64,000 bases of DNA, from contig CM057000.1 in NCBI GenBank assembly GCA_029891345.1, forward strand, positions 122,559,838 through 122,623,837. Reading direction: 5' to 3'. Source of the DNA: Dryococelus australis (lineage: Eukaryota > Arthropoda > Insecta > Phasmatodea > Phasmatidae). The notes under the pieces were generated by a model, which ran no database searches, was not told the DNA's origin, and saw nothing but the letters and a program-made list of their open reading frames with translations. The translations under genes and the position numbers were made by a program. Below, one piece after another: positions 13,245 through 61,865 of this stretch; position 1 is the first letter of the stretch, and every line of letters starts with the position of its first letter.

Positions 13245-13400
13245 AGCGTGCATGCTGACGCACCTGCAGACAATCGTTCATCATCAGTCCCACTGACCAT
13301 GTAGCATCCATAACAGACGTGCCCTAGAGTTACAGACAGCCATACTCTGACGGCTCTGCACGAACCATCAATGCATGTAATTTTAGGGTTGGAGAGGGGA
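13245..13400 (-). CDS. Weak exon candidate, unknown product
   Basis: Inside a 138-residue minus-strand frame (13073-13489), the segment RAVRVWLSVTLG to DDERLSA ends at a good donor (ctgcag|gtgcgt, near 13265) and follows an acceptor-like ttcgtgcag. No domain is recognised. Its ending resembles those of the repeated segments at 12.2-12.9 kb. Confidence 0.25.
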
Positions 13401-13404
13401 GGGG

Positions 13405-13975
13405 TGCAGGCAGGAGCATCGTGGCCACTTTTCTTTGGCTGGCGCCATTTTAGTTCGTCATAAACCTTCGTTCTGGATAAAAGCACCACTGCTCAATGCT
13501 ATTTCCCACTTCACCGGACAGCTGCAGGCCTCCTGTGGCATGACTGGGTGCTTGAGCTCTGCGAAGCCAGGGTTTAAATCCAGCATACAGATGAGTTCAA
13601 CCCTTGTTAAGCAATATTAAATAGGCGTATTAGTTTAATAATAATTTATCAGGAAAATTTATTCGTCTGTTAAGCCGATATAGTGCGTCCATTATTTTAT
13701 AAACATTTAACATCTTATGTACGAGATTCCCTGAACTTTTGTTGTGATAGTTTATAGTGTACACATTGTTTCCATCATTGTGATGTTTGCAATCATCTAT
13801 TATTTTTTTAATAATCCGTGCATTATTCGGTTAGGATTTTTCAAATGTAAATTACCGAAATGTGTGTTAAATAATTGTTCGGACCGATGTAGTGCATCCG
13901 TTAGTTAAAATAATTTTTCTTCGAGGAAGTTTGTGGATTTTTAAAAGTATACTGCATTTCTATGAAGTCTTGCAG
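13405..13975. other. No gene; possible decayed Polinton interior
   Basis: AT-rich. The phrases ccgatatagtgcgtcc (13676) and ccgatgtagtgcatcc (13883) form a pair of related short segments. It directly precedes the orphan Polinton terminus. Confidence 0.35.
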
Positions 13976-13979
13976 TATT

Positions 13980-15552
13980 AAGCCCTTGTTCATGCCATCC
14001 GAGTCTCCTTACACTTCGATGGAAATTGTGTTAAAAGTGAATTATTTTTACAATAGCGAAATTTAATCTTCCCAGGGAAGTGAAAGTAGTGTTAAAAATT
14101 TGGGTAAGTTTTTCTCAGTACTAGTATGTCCATGATATCGTTACGTATTGTAAAAAGTTGTCTGTGCAATTCGCTGCTTAATTTGCAGATCATTAATAGT
14201 AGCTTGCTATGAATCCTTTTTTTTATAGATATAATTCAGGATGTGTATGAGTAGTGTGTAAATCGTTTTGTTGTCTGTTGTAGGACCTAATGTATTCAAG
14301 TCGTTTGCTTCCATCTTTAAGTTATCAGAATGTATGGTAAACCAGTTTTCTAAGGAAGTATTAATTAAGTTGAAAATTCAAGTACGTGAGTCCTGCTCAA
14401 CTCTCTTTCCTGTAATTTCAACTCGGCCACAAGCTCCACTTCTATATGTCATTCCTTGACTGTCCTCACAGCCTCACAGACGTGTTTTGGGAGAGGTGCT
14501 TGTGCGATTTCATTAATTAGTTTTTTTTAATTCAAGGATTGTAATTGATATATTAGTAAGTGCATTATAAACATAATTTATATCCATTTATCATGTAGTT
14601 GTCTAGTCACATCTCTTTCCGACTAGCTACAGCCTCAATCGCCTGCCAGATGCTGGCCACGCTTATTGCCTCTGGCGCAACATGCAAAGTCTCTAATCGT
14701 GCTTAGAAGTCTTCGCAAATCCGATAGGTACTAACGTCATTCCTTCAGCAACCTCGCAGCCGGACAGAAGTGTTTCTCCTTCATGTATAGTTTCATTAAT
14801 TTAAAAAACAGGATAGCTAGATTCCGTAATTCGTTTAGTGATAGTCACGTACTTGTGTTCGGTAGACATTTAATTAATTCATTTTGAAACGCATATCTAA
14901 TCAGATGGGGTAGATTTCATTTCCCAGAAATACGGGCTATAAGTCATTCATTCTGTGATCTCCTGAACCCAATGAACGTATATTAAAATAATTTTATTTC
15001 TTTCCATAGCTAGGGTACATTATAGTTTAAACACTCCTACATTTCTCTCATGTGTTAACTGTATGTTGTTTTCTCTTTCTGTTTAGTTACTATAACCAAA
15101 AAATCGTCTATCTCCCACCAATGTCTACATGCAATATCACTCCCAACCCCCCAAAAAAAAACATTTATGCCACTCTTACATCAAACTCAACTCATATATT
15201 CCCTAGACAATATAAGATTCCCTCACTCCAGTGTCAGCCATCGTCCTGACAACGTTACTCCTCTATATACACCCCTTCCCCAACACACGAACACCTCAGT
15301 ACAGCAACAGAGCTCCGAGGGTGAGAACCTGCCAGAGCTGCTTCCCACCAAAAAAAAAAAGAAAAAGAAAATAAAGTATACCCAACTATACACAAACAAA
15401 CAAAATCCATCAAAGAAATTTGATCAAACATTTTCATCAAAGAAATTTGACCAAATTTCTTTGATAGCATTTCATCGGATTAAGATCGGATTAAGGATTA
15501 ATCCAGTTAATTTTATATCAAAGGGTTAATCCGATTAATCAAAGGTGACATC
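13980..15552 (+). mobile_element. Orphan Polinton terminal repeat
   Basis: This 1.57-kb stretch matches the right TIR of the Polinton at 43920-61859 over much of its length. Shared pieces include catccgagtctcc and gtgttaaaagtgaattatt (13997-14055), cgttttgttgtctgttgtagga (14263-14284), ctctcatgtgttaactgta (15046-15064), the ccagagctgcttccca segment (15331) and the subterminal atcaaagaaatttgatc palindromes (15411-15466). The outermost bases with the ggggcgtgcc end are lost, and no partner TIR with opposite orientation is present in the window. It is therefore a truncated second copy or a solo TIR. It shares an internal duplication with the left TIR that the right TIR lacks. Confidence 0.85.
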
Positions 15553-15730
15553 CCTTTGTATCTAGAAAGCCCATGCATCTACTACATACAAAAATAATGT
15601 AATTTTGGTCAATCCATCATATAAATATATCACTCAAGTCAACACCCAACTAAAAAAAAACCGAGGTTAGATAGTGAAAGAGAATACTCCCTCCTATACC
15701 ACACGAAATAAGTGGCTGTGTCAGGATACA
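15553..15730. other. Spacer between Polinton end and Gypsy element
   Basis: AT-rich, no features recognised. Confidence 0.4.
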
Positions 15731-39034: not shown

Positions 39035-39276
39035 TATAGTTAAAATATAAATAGCTACGATCAGCGATAAAAAAAAAAAAAAAAAAAAAGTTTCCAATTG
39101 AATTCAATTAACCTCAAAACTGTTATGTTAATATTTTCCATGCGCATCAAAGGGTATATAGTTTAGAGTCGTTAATTATTAAAGAAATGCAATCTCTGGC
39201 CAAACCAATATTAGAGATTTTTGTGGGGTATAAGCAGCTATGCGCAACAGCCAGTTTCCGAGACCCACAATGACCT

Positions 39277-42340: not shown

Positions 42341-42910
42341 CAATTAGGGTAAACGAAGTTAGGCTATTCGTAATTAGGCCAAACGATGTTTGGATAAATG
42401 TAATTAAGAAAAAAGCAAATTTCAGATTTTAGGATGAACACAGACTAATCGAAGTTAACGAAAGAAATTAAGCCACACGCCGTCAGTACAAACATAGTTT
42501 CTGTCAAGAACATTTGAAATTTGACATTTTTGTTTAAACTAAGGTAGGGTAAACGCTGTTAGTACAAACGCAGTTAGGACAAACCCATTAGGCTAAACGC
42601 AACTAAGGTAAACGAAGTTATGCCATACGAAATTAGGGCAAATGAAGTTAGGCTAAATGCATTTAAGATAAACGCCTTTGGGATATTCGCATTTAGGCGA
42701 AACACAGTTAGGCAAAACGAAGTTAGGGGAATTGAAGTTAGGCTAACTGCAGTTAGGCTAAACGAAATTAGGGTAAATTAATTTAGGCCAAACGAAATTA
42801 GGATAAATGAAGTTAGGCTAAACGCATATAGGATAAATGCCTTTGGGATATTCGCAGTTAGGCGAAACACAGTTAAGCAAAACGAAGTTAGGCGAAACGA
42901 AGTTTGCAAC
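42341..42910 (+). repeat. Minisatellite, ~15-bp GTTAGGCTAAACGAA unit
   Basis: Dozens of degenerate copies of gttaggctaaacgaa with variants in the last bases (aaacgca, aattgaa, aaatgca). Two longer sub-blocks (about 42652-42720 and 42810-42890, sharing cctttgggatattcgc) show higher-order repetition of roughly 170 bases. It starts exactly where MITE family A homology stops. Confidence 0.9.
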
Positions 42911-43913: not shown

Positions 43914-43919
43914 GAATAC
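43914..43919 (+). other. Polinton target-site duplication, left
   Basis: GAATAC, identical to 61860-61865. Confidence 0.95.
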
Positions 43920-44396
43920 AGTAGTAGCAGGGGCGTGCCGATTCTACTTCACTTTTGATTAATCGGATTAACCCTTTGATATCAAATTGATTGAAAGGAT
44001 TGATCCTTAGTCCGATTTTAATCTGATCATTTTTTTAAATCCAATTTTAATCCTATGGGATTAATTTTTAATCCGATAAAATGTGATCAAAGAAATTTGA
44101 TGAAATAAGTTCGATGAAAAAGTTCGATCAAATTTCTTTGATGGATGTGTGTGTGTGTGTGTGTAGTTCTTCAATTTCATTCTTTATTTTTTTGGGGCGA
44201 GGAGCAGCTCTGGTAGATGTTCACCCTCTGAGCTCTGGCACTCGGATGAGGTGTGGTGTGTTGGGAACAGGGTATATATGTGGTGAGTTTTGTGCAAGAG
44301 TGTCATGAGTGTTAATTTTTTTGGGTCGGTTGTGATATTGCTCATAGACGGTGGTGAGAGATAGGCGAGTTTTTGGTAACAGTAAATAATCAGAAA

Positions 44397-45958
44397 TAGT
44401 GGCTGCTGACGACTTTAGAAACTGGGAGGGCTGTAGTGATCTCTTAACTTAGATCATTACAATTTTACGTACAACAGTGTAGTTTGTGCAGCTAAATATA
44501 AAAATTAATTGTGGTTGTTTGAAGAAAAATGTATCATCACACGATTTGTGGCCTCAACACACTGTGGCCACTGGTTCAAATCTAATCACTAGCACAGGTA
44601 TTTGTTTGTTTAATGTTTGTGTAGGTTATATACCTTCCAACCAGTACCCATGTGGTGTGGTACATTACACAAGACAATGAGAAATTAGACAATAATACTA
44701 ATTCTAATATACTAATGAAGACGATAACTTAAATATACTAAAACAAATATTTTTAAACCCAATACTAATTTACATACAGTACATACAAAATGCATGTCAA
44801 GTTTAGATTAGAAGCTGAAAGTGGCAAATCTTAATTAAAGGATTTGTAAACAAAATCCATTCGTCAACCTGTACACACTATCTAACTGGCAATTAATATT
44901 CACATTACCACACTGAAAATTTTATGGCATTATTTAAATGCCGTGAACATGATGTATGTCTTTTTGTCTCCCAAATGTTTCAAATCTTTTACCCAATTGA
45001 CAGTCCATGCAGTATCATTAGGTTTCACTAGAAAAAAAATTAAACAAAACAACACATATCTAACTTCACATCCTCATAGCCAGTCCATGAAATTATATGA
45101 AATTAACGTTGAATTTTCGCATATATGAACCACTGTGTTTACCATCGTGGCTTTGTTGTTTTGTTATATATACCTGTGGCCTTTCTGGTCCAAAATTTAT
45201 AAGCTCTAGTCTATTCCCGTAATTCAAAATCTTTGTTGTAGTAAGGTTTTAAATGATACTCACTGAATTATCCATTATTCACAAGTTTACATAGCACGAC
45301 AAGAACAACTATTCAACCCTGCTTCTGACCAATGCTCATGGCTCATCATTAACAAATAACTTGTTAAGAATATTACACACTATGTTTGAAGCTCACGTGA
45401 CTTTTAACTATATCTATAATTAAAAACTATTTGAAATAAATACAAGCATTGTTTAGAAATGTGTTTAAAAACTGCAAAAGAGAGGAGAGTGAAAGTGCAC
45501 CTACAAAACATGTACTATATAACTCTAGAACACGTTCTGTTTACAGTGGAAATCGAAGTTCCAGTTTTGATAGCCCTGTCAAGTTCCAGGAAACAGTTTT
45601 TGTGTGAGTGCAGGGCGCGCCCATCTCTCTCTGATTTACAGCATGTGATTGGCTGAAAAGTGGCGAGCCCTGAAGTCTCTCCTCCCTCCCGTAGCTCCAC
45701 TATACCTCTGTTATGGCCGTCTCTCTCTACTCGCTCCACCCACTTCGGGGCGAATAATCTGAAGCCCCGCCACTCGACATTTCCAAAAACGTTTCCCTCG
45801 TGACAAAAGACTCGTCCTTCTCAAAAAAATTGGCTGCGAAATAACATCCATATTCGTACACAGTATTATTTGCTGAGTAGCAGATAAGTAGAGGTCTGCA
45901 TTCTGAAATGTTATTAGGACGGGTGCGCCCCAGAGCCCTTCCTCAGCAGCCGCTACTG
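44397..45958. mobile_element. Nested hAT-like element inside the left TIR
   Basis: tagtggctgctgac at the left and cagcagccgctactg at the right are inverse. The 8-bp duplication atcagaaa is perfect (44389-44396 and 45959-45966), and the TIR homology with the right Polinton end resumes exactly across it. The 1,562-bp interior has no transposase and includes a GC-richer right third (45595-45790). Confidence 0.88.
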
Positions 45959-46139
45959 ATCAGAAAGAGAAAATGATGTATAGTTAACACACGAGAGAAA
46001 TTAATGGAAATAAAAATTTCAAACGAACACAACTGTGTGAATAACCTGGTGTCGAGAAGTGCTAACTCACTAAACGATCACAATTACGTGAGTCTCCAAC
46101 ATGAAATTAATTAACGAAGCAAAAATGTCCCTATAAATA

Positions 46140-46690
46140 TATAAATTAAACAGCTAACGAACATAAGTACATTACTATCACTAAACGAATTACAGAACCC
46201 AGCTATCCTGTTTTTTTAAATAAATGAAATCGCACAAGCAACTTGCAGACTCCTATAAGCTGTTTCGAGTACCGCTTGGCAGGCGACTGGTGAGGAACTT
46301 TTGAAACGGAATCCATATGTTAAACGACGATTATTAAAAAAGTAATGAATTTATTAACACGTGTAAAAAAGAAAATATTTAACAGTCAGTGATTTTAATA
46401 AACATCCATTTTCTCTCGAAGTTCGCTGCAGCACTGACTTGAATATACCACTTACCTTTACTTATAAGCTGAACGAGGTGTTGAGAGAGAACAGAACCTG
46501 CATGTGCATCGGCGTTTGTTTGTTTATAAGCTGAGCTGAAAAACTGGGAAATGAATGAAAATACAAAACGAATAATTCCAAATAAATTAAACGGCTAACG
46601 AATACAAGTACATGACAATTACTAAATGCATTGCGGAACCCAGCTATCCTGTTTTTTAAATAAAAGGAAATCGCTCAAGGAGTTCTCCCA
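46140..46690 (+). repeat. Internal duplication in the left TIR
   Basis: Two copies of about 100 bases offset by 448. The orphan TIR at 14.5-14.9 kb has the same two-copy arrangement, but the right TIR of this element has one copy only. Confidence 0.75.
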
Positions 46691-47467
46691 AAACACATCC
46701 GTTCGATGTGTAGTCTGATGTATGAATGAGTTGAGCTTATGTCGAGAGCCGGACTATATATGTGGAGCACGGCCGATAGGCAACTGAGTTGAAATTTATG
46801 ACAAAAACTCTAAATACACTATGTCCTACAACAGACACGAAACGATAATTTAAAAAAAACTTACCCAGATTTTTAACGCGAGTGTCACTTCCTCGGGAAA
46901 ATTAAATTTCTCTACTTTCAAAATTATTCACTTTTAACACAAATTTCTGTCGAATCTTAGGGCGATTCGGATGACTTAATCCAGGAAAGCGCAATCATGC
47001 AACACTTTATAGAAATGTACTATATATTATTTTTAATGCACAAATTTGGTTGAAGAAAAATTATTTTAAATAAGGGGAATACTACAAATTTCTGTTAAGT
47101 CTGTGAAATTCACCACACTAGTTACCAAAACGATAGTTGAAATTGCTATGAAGTTTCATTGACGGAGATCAGAAATGGAGTTTACATGATAAACACACTA
47201 TAAGGGGTTTAAACACACAAAAAATATTTTTTCCTGATAAATTAAAACTTATAAATATTTTTATATTAAAACACATATATAATATCGCTTAACAAGAGGT
47301 GAAGCCGACTGGCTGCTACGTTCGGTGAATAGATGCTTCAGAGCAGTGCTCAGTAGCGCATCTATCCAGGGTGAGTGTTGCCATCACACTAAGATGGCGC
47401 TGGACAGCTAGAACTATGCACATGGGTCCTGCCTGCAACTGCCCTTCCCCCACCCCTTGTCCAGAAG

Positions 47468-48093
47468 ATGACTTTGTGTGAAAAGAGAGTTTCTATACAA
47501 GGCCACGCACCCCTCCAGCCCAGAGTGTGTGTTCGTCCGAAACGAGAATTCTTCTACAAGGCTGCGCACCCCTGCTATCGATCCAACACTACAAAAACCT
47601 GTTTAGCACCATGTACCCCCTCCCCCTACACCATCCCAGAGTACATTTTCTGCTGGCTGGAGGACTGCCCTGTCCAAGGTCAAGCATCCCTACTATCGAT
47701 CCAACAACGCACTTCGCAAAACCTGTTCATGGATGTGCACCCCCAACCCAGACACCCTACACCAGCCCAGAGTGCTTTTTCTACTGGCTGGAGGACTGCC
47801 CTTTCCAAGGCCATGAACCCCTGCCCTCCTCCCTTCACCACAGCCCAGAGCGCATGTTTTCAGAGATGATAGCTGCCTCGGACAGGAACAGAGGCTTCCC
47901 TCAAGGCCAAAGCGAGTCTTCTATGCATCACATTGGGAAGGCTTCATCACTTGAGCCAGCGGATTTTGAACTGACCTTGGCTATCTCCCCTCTGCCCACT
48001 ATCCTACAAACTGCTACTTTCGCTCGAACACTGAACCAACGAGAAAAACTGTTTCTCCCAAAGCCAGAGCCTGGTGTATTCCCAGCGAAATGA
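47468..48093 (+). pseudogene. Pro/Cys-rich TIR-encoded frames with ~118-bp internal repeats
   Basis: Two overlapping frames (47468-47869, 47527-48093) cover a GC-rich segment whose DNA repeats about every 118 bases (ctatcgatccaaca at 47576 and 47694; gctggctggaggactgccct at 47650 and 47789). The inverse counterpart is in the right TIR (59845-60426). The length of open frame may reflect base composition and repetition and not selection. No domain recognised. Confidence 0.4.
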
Positions 48094-48099
48094 AATTTC

Positions 48100-49700
48100 A
48101 CAACTCCTGCCAATGAAATTTATATCCCTGAAGCTAAATATTACCTGATATTGTAATTCCCACAAGATATTCCCCAGATTTAACATTCCAACAAAAACAT
48201 TATATTTTAATCCTGTAAACTTTATCCCATTTCCCAGCAAACTTTATACAGTTTTCCAGCAAACTATATAATTTAAAAGTGATTCATAATTAATTTCATA
48301 CCAACACAAACACAAGAGATATTCTCACTCTCTATTTTTTTTTAAGTAATGAAAAATCTTTCGATTTAAGGAATATACAAGTTAAACTTAGAACGCTGAT
48401 CTTTTTCAAACATGCATCGTTCTATTTAAGCAATACACAAGTAAATGTTTTTACTTTCAATCTGTTTTTAAATATTTATTCATATAGCAGAGAAAACATA
48501 CATATTCCATCTGTTTTTAAATATTTGTGCATATTTAACATGTATTTTTATCCGTAAGTTTTCCTAGCCCATAATTTCTACTAAAAAATGTGTATATTTG
48601 AACTTATTTTATTAAAAGAATACACAATTTCGATGTGATATTAATGAAATTGCACGTATCCTACCTGAAATGACTGCTTTCTAAGCTGAAATCTGTTAAA
48701 TATCACGATATTTCAACTGATTTTCCTAAAATCCAAATTTAAGCAAATTTAAAGGAAAATGGTAGCCATTTTTTACATAAGTTGAATTTTATTTAAAAAA
48801 ACATTCGATTCTGGTTTTTTTTTGTAAAGTATGATTATGTTTTACCACCAGACAACTTCGTGTTGAATCATCATCAGCAGTAGTAGTAGTAGTAATCTGC
48901 TTGCTGTGAGAAAATGTTTTTTATTTCAATGTTCACTGGACTCTGCCACTGCTTACTTTAGAGTTGAAGGGCAGTGGGAAAACATTCTTGGAGTGGTGGT
49001 GTGTTGCTCAGAGGAGTTTTTACCTGCCTCTGAAAAAGGTATTTGTGTCACTTGACTCTCTGTTTCATTATGTCCCCAGGGTTCTTCGACTTGACCCTCA
49101 GGCCGGCAAGGTTTTCTCGAGATACTAGTCTGTTCCTTTCGTTGCAAATTTCATTCATTCAAACATATTCAATTCTCTCCAACATTTTTGTAATTTCCCC
49201 TGAGCCCTTCAAAGTTTGTTTTTATTAAATTTCTTTAATGGAAATTTAAATGATAATTTTGAATGTACATTATTTTTCTCTCTCACTAAGAAGCAACAAT
49301 CTGGAATTTTTTTCCCTGAAAGTGAGCAAACAGGTATCCTGCTACCTGATTTTAAAATCTTTTGATGCTCCAGATCTCAAATTCTTACCATCATCTACTT
49401 GTTTCATGTTTACCAACATTTTTCATTTAAACATTTCAGATATTAATATCCAGTCATAAACAAGTTCTTTGTCTTCAGACACATCCCATCTCCAATCATT
49501 CACATAACAAGATATTAAAAAATTAGTGACATTAGGAATTAACTAATAAATAGCAAGTCACAGTATACCATTTTAACATAGAAAATACATTTATTTTAAA
49601 AAAATTCATAAAACACACCTTAGTTAACATTCGTAAGACAAAGTCCCTACATATTCGCATCAACATGCTATGATCGGAAAACTTTAAACATGTTACTACA
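48100..49700. other. Polinton interior, no gene recognised
   Basis: AT-rich. Short frames (48953-49147 minus, 49043-49228 plus, 49250-49459 plus) show no Polinton motifs. A DNA polymerase B gene might be expected in this arm, but I see none of its motifs. Confidence 0.5.
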
Positions 49701-49779
49701 AAAACTTTACAAACTTAAAAAAATTAATTGGTAACACATGCTACATTACAAATAATCCAATTCATTACAAACATTTCTT

Positions 49780-50470
49780 AACATTAATGTGTGAAAGCCA
49801 TACATGCTTATTAACCAAAACACCACCTTAGGTCTTAAAACTGTAAAATAATCACAACAAAGTATGTTATGACTGAAAATAATTAAACATTTTTAACATT
49901 TACATGTGAAAGCAATACAAGTTTATTAACCAAAACTCCATCTTACGTCATAAAACTGAAAAAAAATCACGAAGTATGCTATGACTGAAAATCATTAAAC
50001 ATTTTTAACATTCATGTGTGAAAGCCATACAAGTTTATTAACCAAAACTCTAGCTTATAACATAAAACCTATAAATAATCACAAAGAGTATGTTAGCAGA
50101 GAAATTTTTTTTACAATTTTTATGATTGAAATCATAAAGTTTATTAAATCTTTCCATCAGTTTAGGTCATAAATAATTAAAATCATTAACACTTTTAACA
50201 AACTAAATGAAATTTTCTTAAAATTGTTAGAACTTTCAACAAAGTGAATTAAATTTTCTTAAAATTGTTACAACTTTTAACAAACTAAATGAAATTTTCT
50301 TAAAATTGTTAAATCTTCTAACAAACTGAATGAAATTAACTTAAAATCATTAACTTTCTTAGCAAATTGATAAAACTTTATAATTTCAATCATTAAAGTG
50401 TAAAACTTTTAATCATGTCACGTTAAAAACTTTTAAAATATGAGACAACCTTATCATTTCAATCATTAAA
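49780..50470. repeat. AT-rich tandem repeats inside the Polinton
   Basis: First a ~115-bp unit (gtgtgaaagccatacaagtttattaaccaaaac, near 49790, 49905, 50018), then a ~58-bp unit (aaattttcttaaaattgtta...tttaacaaactaaatga) repeated about four times at 50195-50350. No coding content. Confidence 0.85.
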
Positions 50471-51229
50471 ACTGTTTACAATTTCTCACCCTATTAAAAG
50501 TGAAAATCATGATATTTATAAAAAAATCATCACAACATGTTATGCCTGAAAATCTTATCACATCACATCTGAAGAACATTACAATTTTAAAACAGAAAAA
50601 GTATCAAATTATGATGCATCAGAAAGCATTAAAAGCATCACTTCATGTTACGTTTTAAAATCATTCATCACTGCAAGTTTGAATTTTCATAAAAATTTAC
50701 ATTTAGAGTTAAGAAATAAGCTGAATTTGCATTTTATTACAGGAACAACAGATGGTGGTGGTGAAGCAGGAGAAGGAGGTGATGATATTGGACTACAGTC
50801 CATTCATGCTTTCTTCAGCCTTTTGAAATCGAACCTTTGAAAAATCATCCTATACATATTATGTCAACCTGTTTTTCAAATAACTTGTATTCCACAAATA
50901 TTTAACACTGTGATTAACTTTAGAGTACTGAATTATTACATAAATGAAACTTTAACCTGTATTCGTATTAAATACGAATTAGGAACAGCGATAGCAGCGA
51001 CGTGTTGGCAATGGCAGGTAAGAAATAGTTCACAGTTACAATATTTTTTAACCTCGTTTTATGTATACTATTTGTAAGTTAAACATTGCCAATTGATATA
51101 TTCGTATTGTTAGGTAGCACTGTCGGAAAAACATTTCATTGCTGCTGTTAAAAATATCCATGCAAATTCCTGTGTATAGGCTGGTGTTTTTTCCATCTGG
51201 AATAAAGGTTCAATAAGCGAAGCAGAGCG

Positions 51230-51275
51230 TGTCTCTCTCGTTCTCTCTTCTCTCTCTCTGTCTCTCTCTCTCGGG
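51230..51275 (+). repeat. (TC)n-rich tract
   Basis: ctctctcgttctctcttctctctctctg-like pyrimidine tract on plus. Confidence 0.85.
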
Positions 51276-51427
51276 GAGATCGTATAACCTGTGTAGGAAA
51301 GGTATACATTTTGTTATTTCTAATTTCAGCACATCTCATATTAATTACAGTAACAATAATTATGTCTGAGGTAATTTACAACTGAAACAAGATTTTGTTG
51401 TTTAAATACATATTATATGTTATTTAG

Positions 51428-51787
51428 ATGCAACAATATATTTTAGATGTGATGGCGCGACACAACTTGATGTGCGACGACACTTACAAATCCAGAAAGT
51501 TGGCAGACGTGGTGTGGAATGCATTCCCAATATGGCGGCGGCAGGCGACATACAATTACATGGCATGTTTCTCAATGAAGCGTGAAGTTTGTACTCGTGT
51601 TTTTGAAACATCCTACAGAAGTTACAATGTTGTGATAAAAATGTGTTTCCATGGCAGAGTGAAATATGTTGTGATCATTGCTTATGAAAGGGCGTGGTGG
51701 TTGTATTGTAATCAGTACACAGGCCAGGTGTGTGTGTGTGTTGATTTCAAATATGTGCAAAATTTATACGTTTTAATCATGAACTGA
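51428..51787 (+). CDS. Unassigned 119-residue open frame inside the Polinton
   Basis: The longest uninterrupted plus-strand frame of this arm starts MQQYILDVMARHNLMCDDTY and includes SRKLADVVWNAFPIWRRQ. It is mixed in composition, not low-complexity, with several Cys and aromatic residues. I recognise no family. The preceding bases (tatgttatttag|atg) could be a splice acceptor. It may be a captured host exon, an unannotated Polinton accessory gene, or chance. Confidence 0.3.
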   Translation: MQQYILDVMARHNLMCDDTYKSRKLADVVWNAFPIWRRQATYNYMACFSMKREVCTRVFETSYRSYNVVIKMCFHGRVKYVVIIAYERAWWLYCNQYTGQVCVCVDFKYVQNLYVLIMN

Positions 51788-52518
51788 TGTTATGACGAAA
51801 TAAATCATTTACCTTCACGTCTCTTTATCACTATGTTGTATATTTATGGTAGGTGTTTGGAAAACTGTTGTGTAAAGAGGTTACATTTCTGTGATTTGAA
51901 TGTCTGCAACAATCCCAACGAAATACTAAACCTGCCCAGATAAAATTAAATAAATAATAAAATAAACCTACAAACCAGTAAGTACCAATGCATGTAAATA
52001 TTAGCAGAATAAATGGCATGCTATGCTTATGTGTTTCCGTGTTCACCACTATCTTTTCCATTTATCGATGTGCAATAAATAAGTGACACAAGTTGCGTGC
52101 TTGAATTTACTGCGTCGTTTCGTTGGATTGGTTGTCCCTTCATTTTCATTTTTATTTCGAACACATTAATAAAACAGGTTAAATACTAATGTTGTTTACG
52201 CCACAGTTGTAACAAACACTGTTGTGGCAAATATTAATGTGTATTATGTGTAACGTGCTATATCGTGTGTAACAAATAGTTATAAAGCTGACCTAAAAAT
52301 TGTTATAGGCCTACATTGTGAACATTCGTAGGCAATGGTTTCTGCAATATGAGATAATTCTTTGAACAGCTGTAAACAGCAACCAACGCATTTGACAGTT
52401 ATAAAAGTATAAGTCACATGGCAGTGTTTATGTTTACATGTAGTGGAAGGATATGTAATCAGTAACCAAAAGTAGAAATTTGGCAGGGCTTCAGAAAAGG
52501 CCGAAGTTGTCGTGAATC

Positions 52519-52521
<3 letters not shown>

Positions 52522-52579
<58 letters not shown>
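52522..52579. repeat. (AT)n microsatellite
   Basis: About 58 bases of alternating TA. Confidence 0.95.
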
Positions 52580-52580
<1 letters not shown>

Positions 52581-52622
52581 TGTGAATAAGGTATGAACAA
52601 AGGAGGATGTGGGGAAATGAAT

Positions 52623-52853
52623 TTAATGTTGCAGTGATTCAGGTGATGATAATTCAGGGGAAGGTAGTCTTGTAACAGATGAAGACACAAAATTAAACTG
52701 TATAAACTCTGCCAACTCTTGGAATAAGAAGTTATTAGACATATCTTCCAGCATATTATTTGAGGTTTTAAGCATTAGATCTAGTGGATTGCAACACAAA
52801 CACATTGCTCGTTTTTGTACACGTCTCTCACCTGATTTGATGTCTGTTGTCAA
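52623..52853 (-). CDS. Unassigned short frame downstream of the capsid gene
   Basis: A 76-residue minus-strand frame including KRAMCLCCNPLDLMLK and ELAEFIQFNF. No recognisable family; may be a small downstream gene or a decayed segment. Confidence 0.2.
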   Translation of the reverse strand: MTTDIKSGERRVQKRAMCLCCNPLDLMLKTSNNMLEDMSNNFLFQELAEFIQFNFVSSSVTRLPSPELSSPESLQH

Positions 52854-52876
52854 ATCTAGAGCTTCCTAGCTCAATG

Positions 52877-53095
52877 CCCGAGGCATCGCTGTAGAACCTC
52901 GATGCTGGAGTCATCGCTGTAGCTCTGGATGACAGAGGCATTGCTGTAGCTCTGGACGTCGAAGGCATTGCTGTAACTCTGGGCGCTGAGGCGTCGCTGT
53001 AGGTCTCACTACCGCAGACATCAATATACTTGCTCTCAATTTTGTAGGTCTTGTTAGCACAGACATCAATATACTTGCTCTCGACATTGTAGGTG
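52877..53095 (-). repeat. Minisatellites at the 3' end of the capsid gene
   Basis: Five copies of a ~30-base unit (gctgtagctctggatg-gaggcatt on plus; 52881-53008) and two of a 44-base unit (gacatcaatatacttgctctc; 53015, 53059). The 30-base unit is divisible by three and reads in frame on the minus strand as SRATAMP-type repeats, continuous with the capsid C-terminal fragment. Confidence 0.85.
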
Positions 53096-54040
53096 ATGGT
53101 GTATTTAATCCTAATGTTCAAATTTAAATTCATATAGGGGTAAGCTTGACTGTTTAGATACCATTTAATATTTTACATATCAAAACTATCGAATTCTGAT
53201 ATATAAGATTTAAGATTGTTTTATTGGTTTGTTTGAAAACAAATAATGACAAGTCATGGTTTCTCAGATGAAAAACTTGATTTCAGATTCCAAATTACTT
53301 TTTGTGATGTTGGTAGCATTGGAAATCTCTCCAAAGCCCACTATCTGAATGCAATTAATAGATTCTTCCATTATTCGATATATTTTAAAAACTTTACATG
53401 TTCATGAGTCTTAATTTCAATATGTGACATTAGCCATTCAACAGTGTGTAATTAAAATGTTACACCTTCTTCATTATTAGCTGTATCATACATGGCGTTC
53501 AAATGTGTATTACCGAATGAAATAACTAATTCTTGTTTAGTATTTAATATTACATGTTTATAGTCCTTGGTGAAGCCAAGTACCATACTTAATGGTATAA
53601 CAACTTCATATTTTCCACCTGGGTATATTTTTAGTGTAAAATTATTAACTTTCCTCCACCCAGCCATAATACCTGTATAAATATCGATTACAGTTCCTGA
53701 TATATAGTTCTTATCATGGAGGTAATTCCAACATCTTGTGTTTGGTTAATTTCAACACCAATGAGCAGATATCCAATTCTATAAATTAAATGAAGTATTC
53801 TATTTCTCACTATTCCTGTAGTTACAGGATTAATTGCATTGGCTGTCTTTTAGTTGTACCTCTTAACCTTAAACTTGATTTCGACGGTAATGTGTACATA
53901 TCGTGATTTTGTATAGCAATCCTTATTTCCGATGGAAATGTATACGAACCTGCTCGGAATGGTTCATACACATGTATTTCCGTATTGATGATTGCATCTT
54001 CATAACTTATTGGTTCTTCAACATTAAGTACATCTTCCAT
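53090..54040 (-). pseudogene. Polinton major capsid protein (double jelly-roll), broken
   Basis: From the start ATG at 54040 the frame has EDAIINTEIHVYEPFRAGSY and SEIRIAIQNHDMYTLPS (53822-54040). It then continues after a break with KIYPGGKYEVVIPLSMVLGF and KQELVISFGN (53452-53667), FPMLPTSQKVIWN near 53300, and NSQAYPYMNLNLN near 53120-53145. These are signature segments of the Polinton hexon-like capsid. The capsid would build an icosahedral shell with the penton. Stops and frameshifts lie between segments, and the retained part (about 315 codons) is shorter than typical capsids. The C-terminus runs into a minisatellite. Identification is strong; function is lost. Confidence 0.92.
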
Positions 54041-54059
54041 TTTGATTAACCATATATCC

Positions 54060-54200
54060 TAATTCTTTAAAAAAAACAATTTGTTGCCTTGTGCTAACTT
54101 CACAGGTAACTTATTTGAAGTGAACGTTTTATGCTTGTGTTTACCACCATTTATACTTCCTTTTTTTAAATGTTCCTTAGTGACATACTTCTTAAAAGAA
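54060..54200 (-). pseudogene. Small basic segment between capsid genes
   Basis: Minus strand reads KKGSINGGKHKHKTFTSNKL, Lys-rich, between penton and major capsid. It could be the remnant of a small capsid-associated protein. No assignment. Confidence 0.3.
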
Positions 54201-54252
54201 CCACTTACTTCATGTATGTATTAGGTGTTATACACAATACCCATTTTTATTG

Positions 54253-54923
54253 TTATACACATGGAATGCAACTGTTTATATAGCTTTTTATAAAATGTAA
54301 ATGGAAGGTAATTTCTTCCTTTCTAAAATGAGTAAGTTTACAGTCTTGATTGAGAATAATAACAACAATTTCATCAACACGATTAACTATTAATAGAAAA
54401 TATATCAATGTATTTGGTTTTTCAACTCTTTTATATCCTGGTTCCACCACACACATGAATTCATGTAGTGTATTTGTTGGTTTCCCATTCAAATATGAAC
54501 TGCCTACAATATTAACATTTATACAACATATATAACCAACAATATATGAACCTATTATGACAATTTGTGCAATTGATTAGCCTCATATACTCTCCTTTCA
54601 TAACCCAGCATATTTGCAATTGAATTGTCTTCCAAGAAATCAATATCGACATTACTATACATTGCACTAGTAAATGTATTTGAATTTCCATGTAATTGGA
54701 AATGTAAATTTTCAGGTAATTCCACTTTAATGATAGTTTTTTAATCATCCAACTCATAAGATCCAACCAGTATCACAATCTTGTGGGTTTGTTTGCCAGT
54801 GTTGGCCATAAATGATTGGTTATGCATATCAATGTTTAGTATGCTGTTGTAGGTTATGAATTCGATGAGACTTATTTGCCACTCCCCATCTAACTCCAAC
54901 ACAGGGAAAAATATCGCATGCAA
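54253..54923 (-). pseudogene. Polinton minor capsid protein (penton), broken
   Basis: Segments in order: the 54741-54923 frame (DGEWQISLIEFITYNSI, KIVILVGSYELDD), then ENSIANMLGYERRVYEANQL-type sequence (54585-54650, seen as DNSIANMLGYERRVYEANQL), then the 54253-54492 frame (GKPTNTLHEFMCVVEPGYKR and LTHFRKEEITFHLH). This order and the closing motif match the single jelly-roll minor capsid protein of Polintons, which would occupy the five-fold vertices. At least two frameshifts/stops. It lies just upstream of the major capsid gene, as usual. Confidence 0.9.
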
Positions 54924-54959
54924 GTGCGACTAATTTCCAATTAATATCATTATAATTGA

Positions 54960-55420
54960 CACATTACAATTTTTTTTCAAATACACATGCTTATATTTCC
55001 TATTTATATTCAAAAAACACAAACATAAATTACTACAATTAATTGTCTTTGGTAATTGTTCCATTTGATAATTGTACCTTTGCTGCATGTTTTCAAGTAA
55101 TTAAATATTTCAATTGGAGGACATAAATCATCAAAACTGTTGTAATAGAATGATTGATTTGCATTTTTTATTAATGCAACTCAATGTGTTCCTTAATTTT
55201 GTTTCGAATCTAAATTAACAATCATACATTCATGAAGATTTGGTTTCTTTGGTAAATCATCTCTCATATACACACCTTGGAAATAGGAAATAGCCCAGTC
55301 TCATTACAAATATATTAATATCTGTGTTTGTTAATGCATGTTTTGGAAGATTATTTAGGACTTTCTGCATTTTTTTACACACTTCGAGTTTTTTCATGCT
55401 TGTCCTACTTTATACGGTTT
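54960..55420 (-). pseudogene. Polinton adenovirus-type cysteine protease, broken
   Basis: Read from 55400: NNLPKHALTNTDINIF, then a frameshift, GVYMRDDLPKKPNLHECMIV near 55217-55276. Then GTH*VALIKN with a stop where Trp is expected (tca at 55181-55183), then YNSFDDLCPP and finally INCSNLCLCFL near 55030-55060. This is the adenain-like fold order with the active-site His in GTH and the Cys block at the end. The usual residues just before the final Cys block are changed (SN). It would mature the capsid; the copy is inactive. Confidence 0.85.
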
Positions 55421-55429
55421 CAAATACAT

Positions 55430-55923
55430 TCCTTTACCATTTTATTTAACTACTCTACTAATTGCCAAAACTCCTCTGAGGGTTGCCCCAAGTGATGTTA
55501 ATGCTGGAAATAGGAACATAATGATTCCTCCTTTCTTTTTTTTTCATTTACTTTTACATTTTAAGCCCATGCCTTTTTTAACATTTGTGCGCATGACTTT
55601 GCCAACAATCTAGGCGTCTAGCTTCTCACCTGTCGATGTAGACGGATTATTCCTTATATTTGCTGCTTTATCTGCTGGAATTGTATCCGCTATATTTCTT
55701 TCTTTCAAATAGTTTGTTGATCATAAACTATAACATGTTCTTTACATGCATTATCCAGAGTGTTTATTCCTTGATCGTTCCACGCCAGACGTTTGGCAAG
55801 TTTAGTGCCTGGTCCACAATAATAATACTTTGTTAAATGCAATTCAAATGGTAATTTATTAATCAATGTATTCAATACATAGCTTCCCCTTTTGATATAT
55901 TTAGTACGAGTCATTATTGTCAA
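55430..55923 (-). pseudogene. Polinton phospholipase A2-like / small capsid protein
   Basis: The frame 55705-55923 carries LPFELHLTKYYYCGPGTKLA and INTLDNACKEHVIVYDQ. The CGPG calcium-loop-like motif and the H-x-x-x-Y block correspond to the phospholipase A2-like domain shared with parvovirus capsid proteins. The residue after the active-site His is Val here, where Asp is expected. Beyond a stop the minus strand still shows ATLRGVLAISRVV and GKGMYLKP near 55425-55490, typical of the tail of this protein. Expected role: membrane breach during entry. Inactive. Confidence 0.85.
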
Positions 55924-56094
55924 CTGAATGCGAACCTACATATAGACTTGCATTTATAGTTTTTCCATTTGTTTGTTACGCAATACTGTCTAATTGCGTA
56001 GAAATAATGCTTATAAAACAAAATGTACATTTGCTGGTAATTGTAAATATAAAAGAAAACATAATTGAACAGAAACGTGGCATACTTTAACCAT

Positions 56095-56680
56095 GTATAA
56101 TAAACGGTCCTTCTTCATGTGGAAAAACTTTTGATATTATGTTGCTGTTGTAACATCCAAATGGACTTAAATTTGAAAACGTATATATGTGTTTTCTAAA
56201 ACAATACAACTAGAGAAATATCAACGGTTAGCAACCATTTTGTCGTTTATTGATGGATTACAATATTTTCCATTTACAAATAAAGAAGGTATAGTGCCAC
56301 CAAATTAAGCATTACCTAATTCTGTATTTATTTTTGACGATGTTTGGTGTAAACCACAGGATGAAAAAAAAAATGCAATATTTTAATTTTTGTTGGCATT
56401 AAAACGTTTATTGTTTTTATCTATCACAAAGCTATGAACATATACCAAAACATAATTTGAACGATAATGCAAATATGGCAATTGTGTTACAAATGGATAA
56501 TATGAATCAGCAACATATTTACAATTATCATATTTTAGGCGATATGACCTTTACTAAGTTTAATGATATGTGTCTTTACTGTTGGAAAGACAACTACAGT
56601 TTGTTTAGTGATTATACCAACACTTCCCCTGTATAAAGGCATATATAGGCCTGGTTTCGACAGTTTTTTTTATTTACAGG
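56095..56680 (+). pseudogene. Polinton packaging ATPase (FtsK/HerA type), broken
   Basis: Walker A is NGPSSCGKTF at 56103-56132. Walker B is NSVFIFDDVWC near 56324-56352. Between them: KYQRLATILSFIDGLQ and PFTNKEGIVPPN. Afterwards: FTKFNDMCLYCWKDNYSF-like sequence near 56560-56610 (with frame changes). The order is that of the genome-packaging ATPase of Polintons. Several stops interrupt it. It is the first gene on the plus strand and diverges from the PLA2-like gene. Confidence 0.88.
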
Positions 56681-56689
56681 CCAAGAACT

Positions 56690-57392
56690 ATGAGTATTTC
56701 AAAGTTTGGGCATAGTGGTATAAAACATAGTCATTACAATAGCTGTTTAACCAAACATCGCGATGATGATTATGATTTGAACAGACATTTATAATATAAT
56801 ATGGCTGTGAAAGATACTGATGTGGCATATACTGATGTGGAATATTTAAACACCAATACGCTAAACATATTTAAATCACAAGCAAACAATATTCAAGAGA
56901 AATTAATATAATCAGTTGATTTGAACGATAATGTTTTTAAAACCACAAGTGTAATTGCAAACATTAGAACCAATATTCAGAATTATTTGCAGACTAATGA
57001 ATTTAGAATAGAAGAATGTTTAAATGGTTTTAGTAAGGACTTCAATGATATGACATACATAATTTTTGCAACAAAACTTGCAGAAATGCAATATAATTTA
57101 AAATATGTATTTAATGAATTGGTAAGCACTTCAATTACAAAACAACTTGAAACATGAATGGAAGAAATAATGCAATATATATGTGATGAATTTATTAATA
57201 GAAATACAAATCAGTTACACAAACAGATCTCAGAAAACAAAATAAAGATTTGGAAACACAAATAGATTATTTTATTTATGATTTGAGAGCTAAGACTATA
57301 GCTAAATTATATTTTGTTTTAAGTAAAGTAGATAAGATTGAAAAAGCCCAAATTATTCGACTTATTGTTAAAGTTAAAAAACCAACAAATTA
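56690..57392 (+). pseudogene. Polinton protein of unknown function
   Basis: From MSISKFGHSGIKHSHYNSC at 56691 through SQANNIQEKLI and the 56921-57157 frame (NVFKTTSVIANIRTNIQNYL, AEMQYNLKYVFNEL). Stops interrupt it. The middle part is helical in character (Asn/Gln/Lys-rich, heptad-like). It sits between ATPase and integrase, where Polintons often carry an uncharacterised, possibly coiled-coil protein. Function not known. Confidence 0.55.
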
Positions 57393-57479
57393 ATTCATAT
57401 ATAAATAGCTGAAATTTAATGTAATATAATCAAACATGTTCGCCTCTGTTTCATAATTACATAACATTATATCTGCTGT

Positions 57480-58140
57480 GAAGGTGAAATATTTAAAAAC
57501 TAGGCAAGCCCGAATGAACAGGATGTTTTAAACGAATAAATATTTAAGAATGTTACGAGTAGAATGGATACATTGCATTCTGTGTTGAATAAACCTAAAG
57601 AAACAGCTTTAGAAATTAAATCGGAAGAAGAACCTTTAACAAAGAAAAAGCAAACTATTTTCTCATTTAACACATTGTTATTTACCTTCACAACATTCTT
57701 CTCATCTGCGCGATACGACATTTAGTATTTATCGACATGAAAACATCTGGTTCCTTGGAGATTCAGTAATAATGTATTTGCCTGATAATAAAATTTAAAT
57801 AGGTGATTACATAACTGATTTGAGTCAAGGATTGTTTGAATTATTGTTTTAAAATTTTCCAAATAGATATTCCGACACCAATTTGCAAAAATTTAAAGAA
57901 CTTGTTCATTGTACGAATGTGAATATCTTTTTAGGAAATGAAAACCACCCAAAACTTCATTTAATAGTCGGAAGTGGAGTATATAAAGTTGAAATTGACA
58001 ACCAGTTTTCACCTTACATTGGAACAATCCTAATGAATTGGTTGATAGATTAAAATTTCTCATAGCATACAGAGAATCTGGTAATAATTCACGTACATAC
58101 AAAATTGTTTCTATTATTAAAGAGCTGAATGAAGACTGTT
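57480..58140 (+). pseudogene. Upstream domain preceding the Polinton integrase
   Basis: In broken frames: NRMDTLHSVLNKPKETALEI (57561-), then TFSIYRHENIWFLGDSVIMY near 57720-57775, YSDTNLQKFKELVHC near 57870-57910, and LHLIVGSGVYKVEI near 57955-57995. The order resembles the conserved uncharacterised domain that many Polinton-related proteins carry next to the integrase. It may be a separate gene or the integrase N-terminus. Confidence 0.6.
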
Positions 58141-58149
58141 ATATCACCA

Positions 58150-59060
58150 ATGAAGTTTAGTAATATTTCTGAAGAGCTTCACACCCCTGCAAGGATAAGA
58201 TATCCCAGAAGAAGAGTTATTACTAAAGGGTTAAATGATTTTTTTTCAAACCGATATGTGTGAAATGACATTGCTTTCCAAATACAATAAATGATACAGG
58301 TATATTTTAACAGTAATAGATGTTTATTCGAAATAGGGTTGGAGTATACCTTTGAAAAACGAAACTTGGAAACATGTTAGCATAGCAATGAAGATCGATT
58401 TGCAAGAGAGAAAGCCATATTCGCTCCAAACCAACAGAGGATCCGAATTTTCTTCTGTGCCATTCCGGAAATTAACGACATATTATGGAATTAATCACTA
58501 CACAACATATTTGGAAAAGCCACTGTTGTGGAACAATACAACAAATCGATTAAGCAGTTAATATATAAACATTTCACATCGAAAGGGACTTACAAATGGG
58601 TAGATGTTTTGCCTAAAATAGTTAAATTTCATCATTCCACATGTCATAGAACTATCAAGATTGCATCCAAAGAATTGACCGATAATAGTTTAATGAAAAC
58701 CATTTATAATAATGTTAAAGTCATCGATGAGAGAAAACAAAAGTTCAAAGTTGGCCAATATATATGTATATCGAAGGAGAGAGGAATCTTTGAAAAAAAT
58801 TATGGTTAATTGGTCTTACCAAATGTTAAAAATTATTTCAATTTAGACAAACACATCCCAGAGTGTACTACCTACAAACCTATGATGGACATCCCATAAA
58901 AGGTGGTTTTTAGGAACATGAACTGAAAAAAGTTAGCTCTCCAAATGAATATTTGATTGATAAAATCATTAAAGGGAAAAAGATATGTCCTTGGTTTGAT
59001 GGAGGGGTTTCTCAAAAGCACACAACTCGTGGGTTAAGAATAAAGATATTATAAGATTGC
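58150..59060 (+). pseudogene. Polinton integrase with chromodomain-like tail, broken
   Basis: ELHTPARIRYPRRRVITKG near 58170-58230 is followed by QTDMCEMTLL (first catalytic Asp), YILTVIDVYSK near 58300, QTNRGSEF (58427-58450) and, after a frameshift, VEQYNKSIKQL (catalytic Glu, near 58523-58560). FKVGQYICISKERGIFEKNY comes next, and WRGFSKAHNSWV at 59000-59035. This is the retroviral-like DDE core plus a chromodomain-type reader. The second acidic residue is Asn (58433-58435), and stops occur. It would insert the element and make the 6-bp duplication. Confidence 0.92.
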
Positions 59061-59844
59061 AATTAAATTTCTGTAAAAATTTTGATAGTAAAATAATATT
59101 TTAAATCATATTTGATATGTAATTTTATTCAACAAACCTCTGGATGGGGTATGGATGTGTAATCAATACACTTGTTGATTGGATGATCGTTTCATTGGAT
59201 TAACATTTGAGCAATAATCCAATGTGCTTAAAACATTATAATTATTAATTTATTTTGAAAAAATGTACAATATTCCCAAATTATTTCTTAACTTGGTTTT
59301 TTCTCTTAAAAAAAAATAATTCCTTGTAGGTAGAGTGTAATGTTTTCCATAACCGATGTCTATTACAAAGGAAAGGGAATAGTGATCCTGCGTTAACGTT
59401 TGGATACAATGGTGTAGAGAAAGGATAGAAGAAAGAGTGAGATAGGAGAAAACCTAAGTCGGTGTTCATTGAGCGTTCCTAGCAAGACTTTCATTTAGTT
59501 TCCCTTAAACAATCGGATTGGGTTTAGTCAACCATGCACACAAGCTTGGGTTCCGGCGTTAGAAAAAAATGTTATAATTTAATTTCCTTTGTAGCATTAA
59601 ATTCGGTAAAAATAACAATGAATGAAATTAAATTACTTATCGGTAAATTTCATCAAAGATTTATGAAAGTTTTCACTTTACTATGCGCAATTTGGTGGAA
59701 GAGGTGTAAAAAAATAATTTATCGTGATAGCGAAAGTTATTCAGAAACAATAAATTGTATTTCCATTAGTACAGTTACATATCAACTGCTATTATTTCCA
59801 ATCTAGTTGTTAATGTTAAGGGAATCATTTCTCAGCAAAATTTC
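59061..59844. other. Polinton interior, no gene recognised
   Basis: AT-rich region between integrase and right TIR; a plus-strand frame at 59534-59806 (starting MHTSLGSGVRKKCYN) has no recognised domain. Confidence 0.45.
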
Positions 59845-60426
59845 TTAAATATTTATTCGAACGGAAATAAAACGTTCATACACTTGAGACTCGAAATGCC
59901 AGAATTCTTCAAACATCCCTGATATAAAGGTTTGAAGGCTGCTGACCATCTCCGGGTATGGCGAGTCAGGGGAAGGGGGCGGACAGGGGGAGGGGGAATA
60001 AGTACTCCTCTCACAGAACCGGACAGGGTAGATTTTCGGGAGAGTCCACAATTCATGGGTATACCATAGTTTTGCATTCAAATAAAAGGTTTGTATGAGT
60101 TCAAATAGGTGTCTTGAGCGGTGTCTAGAAGGTAGAGAGTCCCCGAAGTTGTTGGACAAAAGACGCGATCTCGGCTGGTGGTGAAGGGAGGAGGGTGGGG
60201 GTTCGTGGCCTTGGATCGATAGCGGGGGTTGTGTAGCTCCCTCCGTGGACAGGGCAGAGGTTCTTCTAGCCGAAATGCACTCTGTGATGGGGGGTTGGGG
60301 TGTGTAGCCGTGGATAGGTTTTGCAGGTTGTGGTTTTGGACCGATAGCAGGTGTGTGTACTTGGACATGGCAGTCCACCAAAAATGCAGTCTGGTGTAGG
60401 GGTGGAGGTCTGAAGCATCTATTCAC
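59845..60426 (-). pseudogene. Pro-rich frame in the right TIR
   Basis: A 193-residue minus-strand frame starting MNRCFRPPPLHQTAFLVDCH. Its first two thirds are the inverse counterpart of the 47468-48093 frames, with the same ~118-bp DNA repeats (gctatcggtccaaa, gctatcgatccaag). The last third (from YERFISV backwards to 60100) lies inside the TIR boundary and is unique. No domain recognised. Confidence 0.4.
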
Positions 60427-60537
60427 CGGACATGGTGGCCAGCAGGCTTTGCCTCTCGTTAAGCTTTATTATATACGTGTTTAATATAAAAAAAATTTAA
60501 TTTTAATTTATTGGGAAATAATAATCTTAGTGTGTTA

Positions 60538-60604
<67 letters not shown>

Positions 60605-61859
60605 TGTTTATTTTGTAAAGACTGTTTCTGAGCTCGGTCGAAGAAACTTCATTGCATTTTCAACTATTGTTTTGGTAACTAGAACAGTGAATTTCAAACT
60701 TGGAAATTTTTAATACGTCCGTTATTTAAAAAAAAAATTCTTTAGCCAAGTTTGTGCACTAAAAATAATATATAGTATGTTTCTATAAAGAGTTGCAGAA
60801 TTATGCTTTCTGGGAATAAGTCATCCGAATCTCCCTACAATTCGACAGAAATTTGTGTTAAAAGTGAATTATTCTTAAAATAGAGAAATTTAATTTTCCC
60901 AGGGAAGTGACACATGTGTTAAAAATCTGGGAAAGTATTTTTTTTAAATATCGTTTTGTTGTCTGTTGTAGGACGTAGTGTATTCAGAGCTTTTGTCGTA
61001 AATTTTAACTCAGTTGCCTATCGGCTGCGCTCCACATATATAGTCAGGCTCTCGACGTAAGCTCAACTCATTCATACATCAAAATCCACATCGAACGGAT
61101 GTGTTTTGGGAGAGCTCCTAAAGCGATTTAATTTATTTAAAAGAACAGTATAGCTGGGTTCCATAATTCGTTTAATGATAGTCATGTACTTGTGTTCGTT
61201 AGCCATTTAATTTATATATTGACAGGGATGGTTTTGATTCGTTAATTAATTTCATACTGGAGACTCACATAATTGTGACAGTTTAGTGAGTTAGCACTTG
61301 TCGACAGCAGGTTATTCACGTAGTTGTGTTCGTTTGGAATTTGTGTTTCCATTCATTTCTCTCATGTGTTAACTATATGTCATTTTCTCTTTCTGTTTAA
61401 TTACAATTACCAAGAAATCGCCCATTTCCCACCACTGTCTACGAGCAATATCACTACAACCCAAAAAATAACAATTATGACACTTTTGCACTAAACTCAC
61501 CCCATATATACCCTGTCCTCAACATGCCACACCTCAGTCGAGTGCCACAGCTCAGATGGTGAACATCTACCAGAGCTGCTCCCAACCCCGAAAAAGAAAG
61601 AAAGAAAATAAAGAACTCCACGCACATACAAAAGAAAATTAAATCAAAGAAATTTGATCAAACTTTTCCATCGAACTTATTTGATCAAATTTATTTGATC
61701 ACATTTTATCGGATTAAGAATTAATCAAATCGGATTAAAACCAGACAATGTTTCGTTCGGATTAGATTGGATTAAGGATTAGCCATTCCAATCAATATGA
61801 TATCAAAGGGTTATGCCCATTAATCAAAAGTGAAGTAGAATGGGCACGCCCCTACTACT
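60157..61859 (-). repeat. Polinton right terminal inverted repeat
   Basis: Inverse of 43920-47860 minus the nested element and duplication. Contains ggtttgcc-like ttcaccggacatggtggccagcagg (60420), a (AT)n (60541-60602), gagctcaactcattcatacatc (61059), ctcatgtgttaactatatg (61362) and subterminal atcaaagaaatttgatc (61643) and ggattaa repeats up to the end. Confidence 0.93.
60541..60602. repeat. (AT)n microsatellite
   Basis: 62 bases of alternating AT within the right Polinton TIR. Confidence 0.95.
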
Positions 61860-61865
61860 GAATAC
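61860..61865 (+). other. Polinton target-site duplication, right
   Basis: GAATAC, identical to 43914-43919. Confidence 0.95.

What the first reader, a model, noticed from the sequence alone, without database searches (positions are those of the whole stretch)
43914..61865. Complete-ended Polinton with a full virus-like morphogenetic set
Perfect 6-bp duplication, kilobase TIRs and recognisable integrase, packaging ATPase, protease, PLA2-like, penton and major capsid genes lie in one 17.9-kb unit. The gene content defines a polintovirus-type element. In this copy all genes are broken, so it is a fossil, but its complete boundaries make it a good reference for reconstructing the family's history in this genome.
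Basis: partly seen in the sequence, partly recalled or inferred. Interest (0 to 1): 0.9.

Follow-up and report, generated by a model that had tools for sequence, protein, structure and literature searches.

The report
Decayed Polinton fossil missing its polymerase
This is the worn-out remains of a Polinton (Maverick), a large virus-like jumping DNA, still bracketed by the marks of its insertion into what is probably a stick-insect genome; it is a typical fossil of a known kind, and no polymerase gene can be recognised in it.

Summary
A 17,940-bp unit (43920-61859) is flanked by a perfect 6-bp duplication (GAATAC), ends in AGTAGT...ACTACT, and carries long diverged terminal inverted repeats (right arm about 1.7 kb; left arm about 3.9 kb because of extra sequence). 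Pfam finds a double-jelly-roll capsid (8.6e-37), a parvovirus-type PLA2 (5e-8) and a retroviral-type integrase core (9.2e-7, just under its curated cut-off). It is a Polinton/Maverick.

"Full morphogenetic set" is too strong. The ATPase rests on one P-loop; protease and penton have no profile support. No protein-primed DNA polymerase is detectable in 47.4-59.7 kb. The capsid match stops at profile position 247 of 316, near a 27-bp tandem array, with about 5 kb lacking recognisable genes beyond. The only capsid homologue found, a protein of the stick insect Dryococelus australis, runs into a somewhat similar array, so this layout may predate the insertion.

Arms differ by K80 0.164; the left arm holds a hAT-like insertion. 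A second, more diverged TIR fragment lies at 13.4-15.6 kb. Mavericks are already reported as abundant in stick insects. An ordinary fossil; interest low.

The parts
43914..43919 (.). left copy of 6-bp target-site duplication GAATAC
61860..61865 (.). right copy of 6-bp target-site duplication GAATAC
43920..47860 (+). left terminal inverted repeat, interrupted by extra sequence; last firm block 47209-47342, then short weak blocks to 47860
   Evidence: blastn HSPs
60158..61859 (-). right terminal inverted repeat, about 1.7 kb
   Evidence: blastn HSPs
44397..45958 (.). secondary insertion in the left arm (1,562 bp), hAT-like: 8-bp duplication ATCAGAAA at 44389-44396 and 45959-45966; inverted ends TAGTGGCTGCTGA / CAGTAGCGGCTGCTGA that are offset by 3 bases; absent from the right arm, whose matching 8 bases differ at one place
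   Evidence: the hAT class is inferred from duplication length and ends (recalled)
46141..46679 (.). direct repeat of 98 bp (46141-46238, 46582-46679, 85% identical) around a 343-bp spacer in the left arm; the right arm has one copy
48090..53050 (.). stretch of about 5 kb without a recognisable gene, with tandem arrays such as 49769-50436 and 52908-53006
52908..53006 (.). 27-bp tandem array about 60 bp beyond the end of the capsid match
53068..53712 (-). major capsid gene remnant, double jelly-roll PF21738, profile 37-247 of 316, 6 in-frame stops
54256..54576 (-). piece that may be the minor capsid (penton) protein: resemblance recalled, no profile or database support
   Evidence: seen; no match
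54933..55180 (-). pieces that may be the cysteine protease: resemblance recalled, no support
   Evidence: seen; no relevant match
55708..55935 (-). PLA2-like domain PF08398
   Evidence: 5e-8; 1.1e-6
56091..56633 (+). possible packaging ATPase: P-loop GPSSCGKT at 56106-56129 and a following piece at 56403-56633; no profile match
   Evidence: no match
58247..59059 (+). integrase remnant: rve core 58247-58507 (PF00665, 29.5 bits, cut-off 32.6) and a weak chromodomain match 58991-59059 (E 0.17)
13386..15585 (+). second, more diverged copy of the right-end TIR, outside the element (outer end placed by eye)

Best explanation
A Polinton/Maverick inserted here by its retroviral-type integrase, which joined both AGTAGT ends to target DNA with a 6-bp stagger (shown: ends, duplication and integrase remnant; inferred: the act). 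It has since decayed by substitutions, stops, frameshifts and a hAT-like insertion in one arm. None of its recognised genes is intact. The pPolB region and the capsid 3' part are gone or unrecognisable; whether this happened before or after insertion is open. When complete, such elements are thought to replicate by protein-primed synthesis and possibly to form virions (literature, not tested here).
For: Perfect TSD and (AGT)2//(ACT)2 ends, the most common end motif of intact vertebrate Mavericks in PMC8097293 (section 7); TIRs (control); capsid 8.6e-37; PLA2 5e-8, a domain that some Polintons carry (PMC4642659, passage); integrase 9.2e-7. The only homologue above threshold among 208 candidates is a D. 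australis protein that itself matches PF21738 at 1.7e-5, 24.7 bits, under the cut-off of 27.
Against: No pPolB, part of the conserved Polinton set; the stretches taken for ATPase and protease have no Pfam match even at E 10; the integrase is below the Pfam cut-off. No relative was found in viral contigs (6 scans).
Confidence: 0.93

Rival explanations
1. The element inserted already lacking pPolB and the capsid 3' end: a non-autonomous Polinton lineage replicated in trans by complete relatives.
For: No pPolB match in six frames of 47.4-59.7 kb although the capsid of the same age scores 127.5 bits. The D. australis protein P0002 has the same order, capsid stub then a 9-residue array: in one of three frames the window's array scores 58 against it, reached by 0 of 500 shuffles (maximum 53); and of 2556 frame readings of 211-bp stretches across the window the two best, 53 and 49, are at the array. 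PMC6327564 states that non-autonomous Mavericks exist (passage).
Against: Two loci only. The segment of P0002 and the stretch were chosen after seeing both; in the other two frames 8 and 18 of 500 shuffles reach the observed score; unrelated stretches score 47 (1651) and 45 (21901); only about two repeat units really align. P0002's own capsid match is partial. The array could be a native part of the element. Other copies could not be read: the genome search did not complete.
Confidence: 0.2
2. pPolB was present at insertion and was removed by a later local deletion and replacement.
For: The gene-free stretch (48.1-53.05 kb) is where pPolB would be expected if, as recalled, it lies at the end opposite the integrase; tandem arrays there suggest rearrangement.
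Against: The possibly shared capsid-array junction in P0002.
Confidence: 0.5
3. A polinton-like virus or Tlr-type element with another replication gene.
For: Tlr elements have integrase and ATPase without pPolB (PMC4028283, passage).
Against: No helicase or other polymerase profile matched at E 0.5 or better; the 6-bp duplication, AGT ends and animal host fit Maverick.
Confidence: 0.04
4. Chance mosaic of repeats and unrelated fragments.
For: The window is rich in repeats, and 26 of 100 control pairs had some inverted match.
Against: TSD, end motif, TIR sum of 1654 columns against at most 429 in 100 controls, and three matching gene profiles between the arms.
Confidence: 0.01

Closest known systems
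Mavericks of vertebrates (PMC8097293)
   Same: 6-bp duplication, (AGT)2//(ACT)2 ends, TIRs, size within their 12.7-24.6 kb range, capsid and integrase on two strands; 96% of the loci there are degraded too (sections 6 and 7)
   Different: No pPolB detectable; different arrangement of the recognised genes (capsid and PLA2 on -, P-loop and integrase on +); right TIR about 1.7 kb against at most 1,447 bp in their intact elements
Mavericks of stick insects (PMC5691397: most abundant repeat type in Timema cristinae, 3.13% of its genome; third in Clitarchus hookeri; passage)
   Same: Probable same host order; same superfamily
   Different: That passage gives abundance only; no copy from it was compared here
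Capsid-like protein PR048_004875 of Dryococelus australis (P0002)
   Same: DJR capsid stub followed by a 9-residue array; 63% identity in the alignment with the unbroken 97-residue piece
   Different: 34-35% over the longer match; its neighbouring DNA could not be read

Membership tests
Polinton/Maverick | 6-bp target-site duplication | tested here: met
   GAATAC both sides
Polinton/Maverick | terminal inverted repeats with AGT/ACT ends | tested here: met
   motif from PMC8097293
Polinton/Maverick | double-jelly-roll major capsid gene | tested here: met
   PF21738 8.6e-37; truncated, with stops
Polinton/Maverick | RVE-family integrase | tested here: met
   PF00665 9.2e-7, 29.5 bits, under the curated cut-off of 32.6; chromodomain match weak (0.17)
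Polinton/Maverick | protein-primed DNA polymerase B | tested here: not met
   no match in 6 of 6 frames of 47.4-59.7 kb. So it is not an intact, autonomous Polinton; it is called only a degraded remnant of one, since gene loss is expected in fossils
Polinton/Maverick | FtsK-like packaging ATPase | tested here: inconclusive
   one P-loop, 0.45 expected by chance; no profile match
Polinton/Maverick | cysteine protease | tested here: inconclusive
   no relevant profile match
Polinton/Maverick | minor capsid (penton) protein | tested here: inconclusive
   no match; whether Pfam holds a model of it was not checked
Tlr / polinton-like virus | helicase in place of pPolB | tested here: not met
   no helicase match

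The most novel reading that the evidence does not exclude
The element belongs to a stick-insect Polinton lineage that lost pPolB and the capsid 3' end before spreading and moved on borrowed proteins, i.e. a large non-autonomous, virus-like satellite of complete Polintons.
Probability: 0.18. Interest if true: 0.4.

Novelty: new member of a known kind. Interest (0 to 1): 0.18.

Why it matters
It adds a copy with both ends, and a second TIR fragment 28 kb away, to the record of Mavericks in a host group where they are known to be common. If the polymerase-free layout proves to be shared by many copies, it would show satellite-like spread of Polintons in an animal.

Tried and rejected
The viral-contig hit L001 was dropped: judged by eye from its list of reading frames (no profile run) it is a phage-like contig with a ribonucleotide-reductase-like frame on the opposite strand of the match. 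Five further viral-contig scans, with the ATPase piece, PLA2 piece, integrase piece, P0002 and alignment A1, gave no relative. Protein searches with the capsid piece and the ATPase piece found nothing. PHROGs and NCBIfam, 9 pieces each, gave only weak matches (best E 0.021 and 0.085). Six searches of solved structures with six pieces gave nothing below E 0.27; one integrase piece touched a retroviral-type integrase chain at E 0.89. The AlphaFold model of the capsid piece has mean pLDDT 43 and was not searched.

A second complete Polinton ending at 15.6 kb was considered: no protein or translated match at 1e-3 between the element interior and the left flank (278 pieces; tblastx), so only a TIR fragment is claimed. 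A nested transposon filling 48-53 kb was looked for through inverted repeats; none convincing among the 25 of 54 pairs shown.

Dating: if the arms were identical at insertion, K80 0.164 would mean tens of millions of years at a recalled insect rate near 3e-9 per site and year; gene conversion and the true rate are unknown, so no age is claimed. An earlier count gave the hAT-like insert's right border one base off; 45958 is right.

Full report
Check of the observation. The duplicated GAATAC at 43914-43919 and 61860-61865 is perfect, and the enclosed 17,940 bp begin AGTAGTAG and end CTACTACT. The ends are inversely homologous: 43923-44399 with 61387-61859 (82%), 45961-46233 with 61123-61395 (88%), 46582-47195 with 60605-61215 (85%), 47209-47342 with 60409-60539 (81%), and two short blocks further in. 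The six blocks sum to 1654 alignment columns. In a control with the same settings on 100 pairs of stretches from 16.5-43.9 kb, 26 pairs had some inverted match, at most 429 columns. K80 pooled over the four blocks with 120 or more compared sites is 0.164 (1482 sites); the two shorter blocks (0.135 and 0.306) were left out of the pool.

Genes. The capsid is the firmest: PF21738 at 5.7e-9 for one unbroken piece, 8.6e-37 for the single frame with X at stops, continuing in the same frame to profile position 247 of 316, with 6 stops in 215 codons. PLA2 PF08398 reaches 5e-8; PMC4642659 notes PLA2-like lipases in some Polintons (passage). The integrase core PF00665 reaches 9.2e-7, 29.5 bits, under its cut-off of 32.6, with a chromodomain match at 0.17 downstream in the same frame. 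A P-loop at 56106-56129 is the only one in six frames of the element; 0.45 are expected by chance, so it is weak alone. The stretches that I took, from recall, for protease and ATPase gave no Pfam match at E up to 10 in three frames of their strand, nor did the stretch taken for penton in one frame or in six frames at E up to 0.5. No polymerase or helicase matched in six frames of 47.4-59.7 kb at E up to 0.5; the arms themselves (43.9-47.4 and 59.7-61.9 kb) were not profile-scanned in six frames. Since the capsid, of the same age, is easily recognised, a pPolB of similar decay should be too; this is an argument, not a measured control.

Where the polymerase might have been. Between the left arm and the capsid match lie about 5 kb without a recognisable gene, with tandem arrays. 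The capsid match ends about 60 bp from a 27-bp array at 52908-53006. The only homologue above threshold among 208 candidates, P0002 of the stick insect Dryococelus australis, also passes from a capsid stub into a 9-residue array that resembles the window's: in one of three frames the score is 58 and 0 of 500 shuffles reach it (maximum 53), while in the other two frames 8 and 18 of 500 do; the two best of 2556 frame readings across the window lie at the array (53, 49), but unrelated stretches reach 47 and 45. The stretches were chosen after seeing both. This hints that the layout predates this insertion, or that the array is a native part of the element. Two loci cannot decide.

Later events. 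The left arm carries a 1,562-bp insertion (44397-45958) with an 8-bp duplication ATCAGAAA and short inverted ends, offset by 3 bases, and is absent from the right arm: hAT-like by those features, which is recalled knowledge. A 98-bp direct repeat around a 343-bp spacer occurs in the left arm where the right arm has one copy. Outside the element, 13.4-15.6 kb is a second copy of the right-end TIR, 64-95% identical in pieces, without a detectable Polinton interior beside it.

What is known. The conserved Polinton set includes pPolB, RVE integrase, FtsK-like ATPase and cysteine protease (PMC4028283, passages). The 6-bp duplication and the (AGT)2//(ACT)2 ends are those of vertebrate Mavericks, 96% of whose loci are degraded (PMC8097293, passages and sections 6 and 7). 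Mavericks were found in all species of an arthropod survey, which also says that non-autonomous forms occur (PMC6327564, passages), and are diverse in wasps (PMC6035795, passages). In stick insects they are abundant (PMC5691397, passage); the D. australis genome paper names neither Polinton nor Maverick in its main text (PMC10268593, passages). PMC11071308 was seen in passages. The host as a stick insect is an inference from P0002 alone, plus recalled resemblance of other repeats. Searches for Polinton with stick insect and for Maverick with Phasmatodea and transposable elements listed 1 and 4 papers; of these I saw a passage of PMC5691397 and judged the others by their listing.

Verdict. A true, complete-ended but gene-poor Polinton fossil.

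Noticed in passing
13386-15585: Second, more diverged Polinton right-end TIR with an end near CTACTAC, without recognisable interior
   Followed up: partly
44397-45958: hAT-like insertion with 8-bp duplication inside the left TIR
   Followed up: partly
51428-51784: Unbroken 119-residue reading frame within the gene-free stretch; no match in Pfam or NCBIfam and one weak PHROGs match at E 0.03
   Followed up: partly
42535-42904: Tandem array with nested periods of 15, 30, 45, 90 and 165 bp about 1 kb left of the element
   Followed up: no
135-1099: Minus-strand frames that look like pieces of a Helitron/PIF1-type helicase (recalled, not profile-tested)
   Followed up: no
28284-28559, 33367-33583, 39274-39585: Repeat family shared by these places whose translation resembles one recalled from stick-insect gene models
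   Followed up: no
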